Part shown: piece after piece, positions 55,983 to 58,075 of the stretch | How the letters are laid out: every line of letters begins with the position of its first letter | Numbering within the stretch: the first letter of the stretch is position 1 | Assembly (NCBI GenBank): GCA_903831455.1 | Contig: CAIKXV010000201.1 | Span: 1 to 64,000 of the forward strand | DNA length: 64,000 nucleotides | Reading direction: 5' to 3' | Source of the DNA: an uncultured Pseudomonadota bacterium | Lineage (GTDB): Bacteria > Pseudomonadota > Gammaproteobacteria > Burkholderiales > CAIKXV01 | Translations under genes and position numbers: made by a program | The notes under the pieces: generated by a model | The model's input: only the letters and a program-made list of their open reading frames with translations | The model's database searches: none | Told to the model about the DNA's origin: nothing

Positions 55983-57416
55983 TCAGCGGCTACCCGCCTC
56001 GACCGGCGGATGCAGCAGCCTCGAACCGGTCGCGGCATTCGCCAGGGGAAGCATGACGAGCAGGGTAACCACCAGCAGCGCCATCTCGGCGCAGTAGACG
56101 ACGAGATACCCGGTGGCGGCGTCCAGCCCGGTCGCACCCGGCGCGATGCCCGCAATCGCGTTCACGACGTCGCGGAGAATACCCCCGAGGACCACGCCGA
56201 GACCGGCTGCCGTGGCCTGCACAGCCCCCCAGGCGCCCAGCGCAAGGCCGGTATGCTCCGGCGGGGCGTGTTGCATGGTGGCCGTCAGCGTGCCGTGGCC
56301 GAACAGCCCGCCGCCGACGCCCACCAGCAGCACGCCCAGCGCGAACAGCGGCAGGTTCCCTGCAGGCGCGGCCAGCGAGATGGCCATGAATGCAGGTATG
56401 CCGACCGCGGCTCCCGCGATGGCCATGCGAAACGCATCGGTCCCGCGGGAGAGAATCACCGAGGCGAACGCGAAGCCTGCAAGGCCACCCAGGGCGAGGG
56501 TCGCGGTCAGCAGGGTGGTCGATCCGATCGACATCGACAGCACCTGGCCCCCGTAGGGCTCCAGCAGGACATCCTGCATGCCGAAGGCCAGCGTGCCGAG
56601 CCCGATCGCGAGCAGGCGGCGCCGCGCGTTGGGGCCGCCGGCGTATACGCGCCATGCATCGATGAAGCCGGGGGCAGGCTCGTGCGCCGCGCGCCGGCGC
56701 CCCGGACGGCGCGTCTCCTGTTTCCAGAGGGCCAGCCCGTTGAGCACGAGCGTCGCGACGGCCGACCCCTGGATGACCTGCACGAGGCGACCGGGCGAGA
56801 AGTCGGACAGCAGCCAGCCGAACAGCACGGCCGAGCCCATCGAACCCAGAAGCAGCATCACGTACATGAGTCCGACGACGCGCGGCTGCGAGCGGGGAGC
56901 CACCAGATCGGTGGCGAGCGCCAGTCCGGCCGTCTGGGTGGTGTGTACCCCTGCGCCCACGAGCAGGAAGGCGAGCCCTGCAGCCAGCTGCCCGATCCAG
57001 GTGGGCCACTGATCCGACTGGCCCGCGCCGGACAGGACGAGCAGCGCGAAGGGCATGATCGCCAGCCCGCCGAACTGGATCAGCGTTCCCATCCACATGA
57101 AAGGGACGCGACGCCACCCCAGCGCCGATCGGTGGTGATCGGAACGGAATCCCACGAGCGCCCGCATCGGCGCGTAGAGCACCGGCAGCGAGACCATGAT
57201 CGCGACCAGCGCGGCGGGTACGCCCAGCTCGACGATCATCACGCGGTTCAGCGTGCCGACGAGCAGCACCAGCGCCATGCCGACGGCGACCTGGAACAGG
57301 GACAGGCGCAGCAGGCGCGCGAGCGGCAGGTCGGCGCTGGCTGCGTCCGCGAACGGCAGAAAGCGCGGTCCCAGGCGCGCCCACGCGCGTCCAAGGGGGC
57401 CTGCAGTTCGGCTCAT
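55983..57416 (-). CDS. pucC: PucC-family light-harvesting assembly transporter
   Basis: LLRLSLFQVAVGMALVLLVGTLNRVMIVELGVPAALVAIMVSLPVLYAPMRALVGFRSDHHRSALGWRRVPFMWMGTLIQFGGLAIMPFALLVL. Confidence 0.93.
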   Translation of the reverse strand: MSRTAGPLGRAWARLGPRFLPFADAASADLPLARLLRLSLFQVAVGMALVLLVGTLNRVMIVELGVPAALVAIMVSLPVLYAPMRALVGFRSDHHRSALGWRRVPFMWMGTLIQFGGLAIMPFALLVLSGAGQSDQWPTWIGQLAAGLAFLLVGAGVHTTQTAGLALATDLVAPRSQPRVVGLMYVMLLLGSMGSAVLFGWLLSDFSPGRLVQVIQGSAVATLVLNGLALWKQETRRPGRRRAAHEPAPGFIDAWRVYAGGPNARRRLLAIGLGTLAFGMQDVLLEPYGGQVLSMSIGSTTLLTATLALGGLAGFAFASVILSRGTDAFRMAIAGAAVGIPAFMAISLAAPAGNLPLFALGVLLVGVGGGLFGHGTLTATMQHAPPEHTGLALGAWGAVQATAAGLGVVLGGILRDVVNAIAGIAPGATGLDAATGYLVVYCAEMALLVVTLLVMLPLANAATGSRLLHPPVEAGSR

Positions 57417-57571: not shown

Positions 57572-57775
57572 CTACTTCTTCGCCGCGGGCGGCGCGGCTG
57601 CGGCCTGCGCAGAGGCCTGCGCGGTCGCGGTCTTGCCGTTGAGGAAGGTCTTCACCCACGTGGTGTTCGTGAGCAGCGCGACGTGCACCGCGAACGAACC
57701 GATGGCCACCGCGCTCAGGAAGAGCGGGATGCCGACCGAAGGCTTCACCACGAGCCAGATTTTTCCGTAGATCAT
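57572..57775 (-). CDS. pucA: Light-harvesting LH2/LH3 alpha subunit
   Basis: MIYGKIWLVVKPSVGIPLFLSAVAIGSFAVHVALLTNTTWVKTFLNGKTATAQASAQAAAAPPAAKK: GKIW start, His31, TTW38-40. Confidence 0.93.
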   Translation of the reverse strand: MIYGKIWLVVKPSVGIPLFLSAVAIGSFAVHVALLTNTTWVKTFLNGKTATAQASAQAAAAPPAAKK

Positions 57776-57790: not shown

Positions 57791-57946
57791 TTACTTGAGC
57801 CAGGGCGAATAGATGTAGGCGAGCAGGTGAGCGAGCGCCGCGATCATCCCGAAGATCTGCGTGCCCTGGATCAGGTGGCGGTGCAGTTCCTCGGATTCGG
57901 CCTCGGTCAGGCCTGTCGGCCACACCTTGTCTTTCGCGTCTTCCAT
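57791..57946 (-). CDS. pucB: Light-harvesting LH2/LH3 beta subunit
   Basis: MEDAKDKVWPTGLTEAESEELHRHLIQGTQIFGMIAALAHLLAYIYSPWLK: conserved LH-beta signature. Confidence 0.93.
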   Translation of the reverse strand: MEDAKDKVWPTGLTEAESEELHRHLIQGTQIFGMIAALAHLLAYIYSPWLK

Positions 57947-58057: not shown

Positions 58058-58075
58058 TGTCATTTTAAAATGACA
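58058..58075. promoter_or_regulatory. PpsR/CrtJ-type operator 1
   Basis: TGTCATTTTAAAATGACA: TGT-N12-ACA, perfect palindrome, upstream of pucB in an AT-rich island. Confidence 0.75.

What the first reader, a model, noticed from the sequence alone, without database searches (positions are those of the whole stretch)
57572..57775. puc alpha subunit carries Phe44-Leu45: predicted B800-820 (LH3-type) antenna
A gap-free alignment with the remembered Rps. acidophila B850 alpha sequence places His31, T38/T39/W40 in register, and positions 44-45 read F-L (codons at 57646-57641) instead of Y-W. In Rps. acidophila, replacement of Tyr44/Trp45 by Phe/Leu removes H-bonds to the B850 acetyl groups and marks the low-light B800-820 complex. 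This predicts a blue-shifted antenna. The Ala/Pro-rich C-terminal extension is also notable.
Basis: partly seen in the sequence, partly recalled or inferred. Interest (0 to 1): 0.78.

Follow-up and report, generated by a model that had tools for sequence, protein, structure and literature searches.

The report
Blue-shifted LH2 antenna, freshwater betaproteobacterial type
This gene pair encodes a bacterial light-harvesting ring whose main pigment contacts have been lost, so it should absorb shorter-wavelength infrared light; the same change is shared by almost all freshwater relatives examined and is therefore their standard antenna, not a special low-light version.

Summary
The LH2 alpha subunit (57775-57572, minus strand) reads Phe44-Leu45 in gap-free register with Rhodoblastus acidophilus, at the stated codons. 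A blue-shifted antenna is well supported; the "B800-820 (LH3-type), low-light" label only partly. LH3 of strain 7050 keeps one C3-acetyl hydrogen bond through Tyr41. Here position 41 is Val, as in the Rps. palustris PucD complex (B803), while Ser27 is kept, as in the Rhodobacter sphaeroides Y44F/Y45L mutant (B800-826). No YW-type copy was found in the genome, so this is its only peripheral antenna. All 10 readable same-genus sequences and 79 of 81 close relatives carry Val41-Phe44-Leu45 with Ser27, including Polynucleobacter and Rubrivivax-like bacteria. Limnohabitans planktonicus, probably of this type, has in vivo bands at 799 and 813 nm. I predict a lower band between about 805 and 826 nm, most likely near 813. 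A sigma-70-like promoter overlapped by tandem PpsR-type boxes precedes pucB. The match to Rbl. acidophilus is convergent. Spectrum, structure and expression were not measured.

The parts
57572..57775 (-). pucA: LH2 alpha apoprotein, 67 aa; Met1, Ser27, His31, Trp40, Val41, Phe44, Leu45; Ala/Pro-rich tail
57641..57646 (-). codons for Phe44 (TTC) and Leu45 (CTC), replacing the Tyr44/Trp45 (or Tyr45) donors
   Evidence: register
57653..57655 (-). codon for Val41 (GTG), the place of Tyr41 in LH3 of strain 7050 and Val41 in PucD
   Evidence: PMC6988754
57791..57946 (-). pucB: LH2 beta apoprotein, 51 aa, MEDAKDKVWPTGLTEAESEELHRHLIQGTQIFGMIAALAHLLAYIYSPWLK
57857..57859 (-). beta Gln at His0 -10 (CAG), replacing the Arg that hydrogen-bonds the B800 C3-acetyl in Rba. 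sphaeroides
   Evidence: conserved in relatives; role of Arg from PMC8775250
58062..58089 (-). sigma-70-like promoter: TTGACA, 16-nt spacer, TAAAAT (11 of 12)
   Evidence: 1 found, 0.1 expected in shuffles
58058..58075 (-). PpsR/CrtJ-type box, perfect palindrome TGTCATTTTAAAATGACA, over the -10
   Evidence: PpsR gene present on C296
58084..58101 (-). second PpsR/CrtJ-type box TGTTCGATTAGGTTGACA, 26 bp upstream of the first, over the -35
55983..57416 (-). pucC-type assembly factor (PUCC family / MFS); the ATG at 57416 (MSRTAG...) is a likelier start than the 57542 TTG of the listed ORF
   Evidence: PF03209, E=1e-146; start codon read

Best explanation
pucBA at 57946-57572 with the adjacent pucC encodes the organism's only peripheral LH2 antenna. 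It is a constitutively blue-shifted LH2, not one of a low-light/high-light isoform pair. Phe44 and Leu45 cannot hydrogen-bond the C3-acetyl groups of the strongly coupled BChl ring, and Val41 does not supply the substitute bond that Tyr41 gives in LH3 of strain 7050. The ring's band therefore shifts from ~850 nm to somewhere between about 805 and 826 nm, most likely near 813 nm, close to the ~800 nm band. The retained Ser27 (C13-keto bond in Rba. sphaeroides) and beta-Gln(-10) in place of the B800-bonding Arg make this a distinct variant common to freshwater Betaproteobacteria. Transcription probably starts from a promoter overlapped by two PpsR-type boxes, so it is probably repressed by PpsR under oxygen or strong light. 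Shown: sequence, register, clade-wide conservation, single copy in the assembly, boxes, PpsR and AcsF genes. Inferred: loss of bonds, absorption maximum, ring assembly and regulation.
For: Register and residues. One LH2 pair plus one LH1 pair in the own genome; the LH1 pair follows bchXYZ on C10. Same-genus genomes searched give only FL alphas where readable. V41-F44-L45 in 79 of 81 close relatives and S27 in all 81, with Gln at beta -10 wherever it could be read (48 of 48 in the Limnohabitans-type genus). Spectral calibration: no C3 bonds gives B803 in PucD, one bond gives ~825, two give ~850 (PMC9618040); the FL mutant of Rba. sphaeroides, which keeps Ser27, is B800-826; Rfx. antarcticus FF is 819 nm; Limnohabitans planktonicus is 799/813 nm (PMC12654162). 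Val41 replacing Tyr41 means a lost bond in PucD (PMC6988754). Promoter and boxes. PpsR 532.8 bits. AcsF present, BchE and RuBisCO not found.
Against: No spectrum exists for this organism. The three nearest calibrations disagree (803, 813, 826 nm). The L. planktonicus alpha sequence itself was not read; its type is inferred from a genus whose member L112 is titled Limnohabitans. The conserved beta Trp(+9) could give a bond as in Phaeospirillum molischianum, although PucD has the same Trp and a near-identical tail (AHFLAYVYSPWL against AHLLAYIYSPWLK) and no such bond. The genome is in 306 contigs, so a second copy could be missing.
Confidence: 0.75

Rival explanations
1. A true LH3: a B800-820 complex like that of Rbl. 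acidophilus 7050, made mainly at low light.
For: Phe44-Leu45 identical to 1IJD; an 820 nm band lies inside the predicted range.
Against: Val41 instead of Tyr41, so the bond that characterises LH3 is absent. No high-light YW partner gene was found. The tree places it in a different, supported group from 1IJD.
Confidence: 0.08
2. PucD/LH4-like: with no donor at 41, 44 or 45 the coupled ring absorbs at ~800-806 nm and merges with B800 into one peak.
For: Best solved match of the alpha chain is PucD 7ZE3, with V41-F44-M45 and no C3 bonds, B803.
Against: Ser27 is kept here but is Val in PucD. The FL mutant of Rba. sphaeroides, with Ser27, is still at 826 nm. Limnohabitans planktonicus shows two peaks, 799 and 813 nm.
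Confidence: 0.15
3. Near-ordinary energy: another residue (beta Trp+9, or another alpha residue) replaces the lost bonds and the band stays at 835-850 nm.
For: Phs. molischianum and Mch. purpuratum use beta Trp bonds (PMC9618040 Table 1).
Against: PucD has the same beta Trp and tail without such a bond. Limnohabitans planktonicus has no 850 nm band listed.
Confidence: 0.07
4. A second concentric ring around RC-LH1 as in Gemmatimonas phototrophica (LHh, B816) rather than a separate LH2 ring.
For: A review speculates this for Limnohabitans because the Gemmatimonas cluster may come from Betaproteobacteria (PMC12654162); the ~813-816 nm energies are similar.
Against: Both chains match nonameric LH2 structures best (alpha 7ZE3 E=4e-17, beta 7ZDI E=1e-21); no further outer-ring alpha chain (such as 7O0U, seen with a different query) was among the alpha's matches at E<=0.01.
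Confidence: 0.04

Closest known systems
Rps. palustris PucD-LH2 (7ZE3, B800-B803)
   Same: Val41 and Phe44; no donor at 45 (Met there, Leu here); near-identical beta C-terminal tail; best alpha match among solved structures
   Different: Ser27 here against Val27; beta Gln(-10) here against Arg; PucD is one of several copies and is made only at low light, whereas this is the only copy found
Rba. sphaeroides LH2 alpha Y44F/Y45L mutant (B800-826)
   Same: Phe44-Leu45, Ser27 kept, hydrophobic residue at 41 (Leu there, Val here)
   Different: Laboratory mutant of a YY protein; beta Arg(-10) kept
Rbl. acidophilus 7050 LH3 (1IJD, B800-820)
   Same: Phe44-Leu45
   Different: Tyr41 gives a substitute hydrogen bond there; low-light alternative to a YW copy; separate branch of the tree
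Limnohabitans planktonicus LH2 (in vivo 799/813 nm)
   Same: Freshwater betaproteobacterial aerobic phototroph; a genus set that includes a Limnohabitans-titled genome has the same V/I41, F/Y44, Leu45, Ser27 and beta Gln(-10) pattern
   Different: Its own sequence was not read here; Limnohabitans puc genes lie inside the photosynthesis cluster (PMC12654162), whereas here pucBAC is on another contig than PpsR and AcsF
Rhodoferax antarcticus sole LH3 (819 nm)
   Same: Betaproteobacterium whose only puc operon is blue-shifted
   Different: Phe44-Phe45; purple nonsulfur bacterium with RuBisCO

Membership tests
LH2 peripheral antenna (PF00556, alpha/beta pair) | Pfam LHC match over cut-off in both chains | tested here: met
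   44.4 and 36.3 bits, cut-off 23
LH2 peripheral antenna (PF00556, alpha/beta pair) | alpha His31 and beta His0 ligands, LH2-type chains rather than LH1 | tested here: met
   best matches are LH2 structures
LH2 peripheral antenna (PF00556, alpha/beta pair) | pucC assembly gene adjacent | tested here: met
   PUCC E=1e-146 directly downstream
LH3 of Rbl. acidophilus type (B800-820) | Phe44-Leu45 | tested here: met
LH3 of Rbl. acidophilus type (B800-820) | Tyr41 hydrogen-bond donor | tested here: not met
   Val41; Tyr41 in 1IJD
LH3 of Rbl. acidophilus type (B800-820) | Alternative to a YW LH2 copy in the same genome | tested here: not met
   Only one LH2 pair found in the own genome (draft, 97.8% complete)
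LH3 of Rbl. acidophilus type (B800-820) | Absorption near 820 nm, low-light expression | not testable with these tools
   Needs spectra and expression data
PucD/LH4 type | No donor at alpha 41, 44 and 45 | tested here: met
   Val41, Phe44, Leu45
PucD/LH4 type | Single NIR band near 803 nm | not testable with these tools
   Needs a spectrum
Gemmatimonas LHh outer ring | Sequence match to outer-ring alpha chains, closer than to nonameric LH2 | tested here: inconclusive
   All matches of the alpha at E<=0.01 are LH2/LH3 entries; the Gemmatimonas chains were not identified by organism in the output

The most novel reading that the evidence does not exclude
Across a large, ecologically important group of freshwater Betaproteobacteria the sole peripheral antenna is a natural LH2 variant in which the usual C3-acetyl hydrogen-bond donors of both BChl rings are replaced (alpha V41/F44/L45 and beta Arg(-10) to Gln). 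This would give a permanently blue-shifted antenna with two nearly overlapping bands (~799/813 nm) as their standard state, with weakened carotenoid sensing of membrane potential.
Probability: 0.35. Interest if true: 0.55.

Novelty: new variant of a known kind. Interest (0 to 1): 0.38.

Why it matters
Antenna colour in purple bacteria is tuned by a few hydrogen bonds, and several well-studied blue-shifted forms are low-light alternatives. Here one substitution pattern is fixed across many freshwater phototrophs as, where checked, their only LH2. That ties a sequence rule to lake bacteria at large and makes it testable in cultured Polynucleobacter and Limnohabitans. The beta Gln(-10) change offers a natural counterpart to the Rba. 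sphaeroides Arg(-10) mutants.

Tried and rejected
Sharing by descent with Rbl. acidophilus LH3 was rejected: a supported branch (96/81) separates them, even though columns 41/44/45 were left in the tree, which would favour grouping (only 81 columns, so inner forks are weak). A hidden YW copy was not found. NCBIfam's label for the beta chain (LH1 beta, NF040862) was rejected because structure matches and the alpha partner are LH2. Kasalicky 2018 (Limnohabitans spectra) is not held, so its value is cited through the review PMC12654162. The organism of PDB 9LT4 (B800/814) could not be settled. Structure prediction was not run because it carries no pigments and cannot test these bonds. One search's output is wrong (slicing bug in my script) and was replaced. 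The whole-genome count of TGTC-N10-GACA (54 sites) is mostly GC-rich chance-like sites, and one site in the window is about what chance gives (0.72 expected), so the motif alone is not evidence; the evidence is its place and recurrence upstream of pucB.

Full report
What is there. The minus strand of the window carries pucB (57946-57791), pucA (57775-57572) and a PUCC-family gene (likely start 57416, end 55983; PF03209 E=1e-146).

Sole LH2. The whole-genome search with PF00556 gives four chains over cut-off: this pair and one LH1 pair. The LH1 pair follows bchX, bchY and bchZ on contig C10 (names from reading the translations). Among 10 other genomes of the genus, 9 have an alpha match and one (G001, 84% complete) has none. 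G008 has two matches, both FL. Every same-genus sequence readable through position 45 is V41-F44-L45, the window's included. In G006 the frame is interrupted by a TGA and was not read. No YW type appeared. The genome is a draft (306 contigs, 97.8% complete), so absence is not proof.

How widespread. A scan of named genomes returned 532 relatives and kept the best 80, nearly all titled as Betaproteobacteria and many from lake or pond metagenomes. Including the window, 79 of 81 alphas are V41-F44-L45 and two are Y44-L45; all 81 have Ser27. Beta position -10 is Gln in every chain where it could be read. L064 and L067 were missed by the pattern but read GTQ. These 80 were chosen for similarity to the query, so they show conservation within the group, not a frequency among all LH2. 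In a second set, the genus of a Limnohabitans-titled genome, 47 alphas are FL and 3 are YL, all with Ser27 and with Gln at beta -10 in 48 of 48 readable. More distant members of the order vary: FL, FM, FY, YY and YH. All 101 distinct MIY-type alphas pair with beta Gln(-10), including YY and YH types; the six MNQ/MTN-type alphas pair with Arg. So the B800-site change goes with the clade and not with the FL change itself.

What it should do. A table of solved complexes ties the coupled-ring band to C3-acetyl bonds: two bonds ~850 nm, one ~825, none ~803 (PMC9618040). LH3 of strain 7050 has lost two and gained one through Tyr41. This protein has Val41, which in PucD means no bond. By that rule alone it should be near 803 nm. 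Against this, the Rba. sphaeroides FL mutant keeps Ser27 and sits at 826 nm; its residue 41 is Leu (7PBW sequence). Rfx. antarcticus FF is at 819 nm, and Limnohabitans planktonicus is at 799/813 nm. I take 805-826 nm as the range and ~813 nm as the most likely value. This is inference. The beta Arg at -10 contributes about 10 nm to the B800 band and lets the carotenoid sense membrane potential in Rba. sphaeroides (PMC8775250). Gln can still donate a bond, and 799 nm in Limnohabitans suggests little shift if it shares the residue.

Regulation. A sigma-70-like promoter (TTGACA-16-TAAAAT, 11 of 12; 0.1 expected) lies at 58089-58062. Two TGT-N12-ACA boxes, 26 bp apart, cover its -35 and -10 (58101-58084 and 58075-58058). 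That spacing and consensus fit PpsR/CrtJ from general knowledge. At least one such box was found upstream of pucB in 75 of 88 distinct upstream stretches, many with the same 26-bp spacing; about 0.07 per stretch would be expected from the local base composition. These sequences are related, so the count is not 88 independent tests, and one stretch (L057) ran far beyond its intended length and should be ignored. The genome has a PpsR gene (532.8 bits).

Lifestyle. AcsF, the oxygen-dependent cyclase, is present on the same contig as PpsR. BchE and RuBisCO were not found. This fits an aerobic photoheterotroph. A draft assembly limits the weight of the absences.

Origin. In a tree of alpha and beta cores, the Burkholderiales group is separated from Rbl. 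acidophilus 1KZU/1IJD by a supported branch (96/81), and the beta-Gln group is supported (99/96), so the shared Phe-Leu is most simply convergent. With 81 columns most inner forks are unresolved.

Conclusion. The LH3 and low-light label is not established: a defining LH3 contact is absent and no alternative copy exists in the assembly. The better description is the freshwater betaproteobacterial blue-shifted LH2, probably near 799/813 nm.

Noticed in passing
window 57791-57946: NCBIfam NF040862 (LH1 beta, pufB) passes its cut-off on this LH2 beta chain and on a Limnohabitans-type one; automatic annotation would misname these as LH1 beta.
   Followed up: partly
L141 around 8605 (G000:C133:16604-16621): Another AT-rich TGTC-N10-GACA palindrome (TGTCATTAAAAACTGACA) lies between a MerR/B12-binding-like regulator (309 aa) and an amine-oxidase-like gene, as in LitR/CarH light-regulated clusters; names are from reading the translations.
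   Followed up: partly
L018 (G006:C29:2056-2262): In one same-genus genome the pucBA match contains an internal TGA and the beta and alpha starts appear fused; a pseudogene or an assembly error.
   Followed up: no
L025, L032: Two related genomes have Tyr44-His45 (YH) with Ile41 in an otherwise MIYGK/beta-Gln LH2; this combination would be an interesting spectral test.
   Followed up: no
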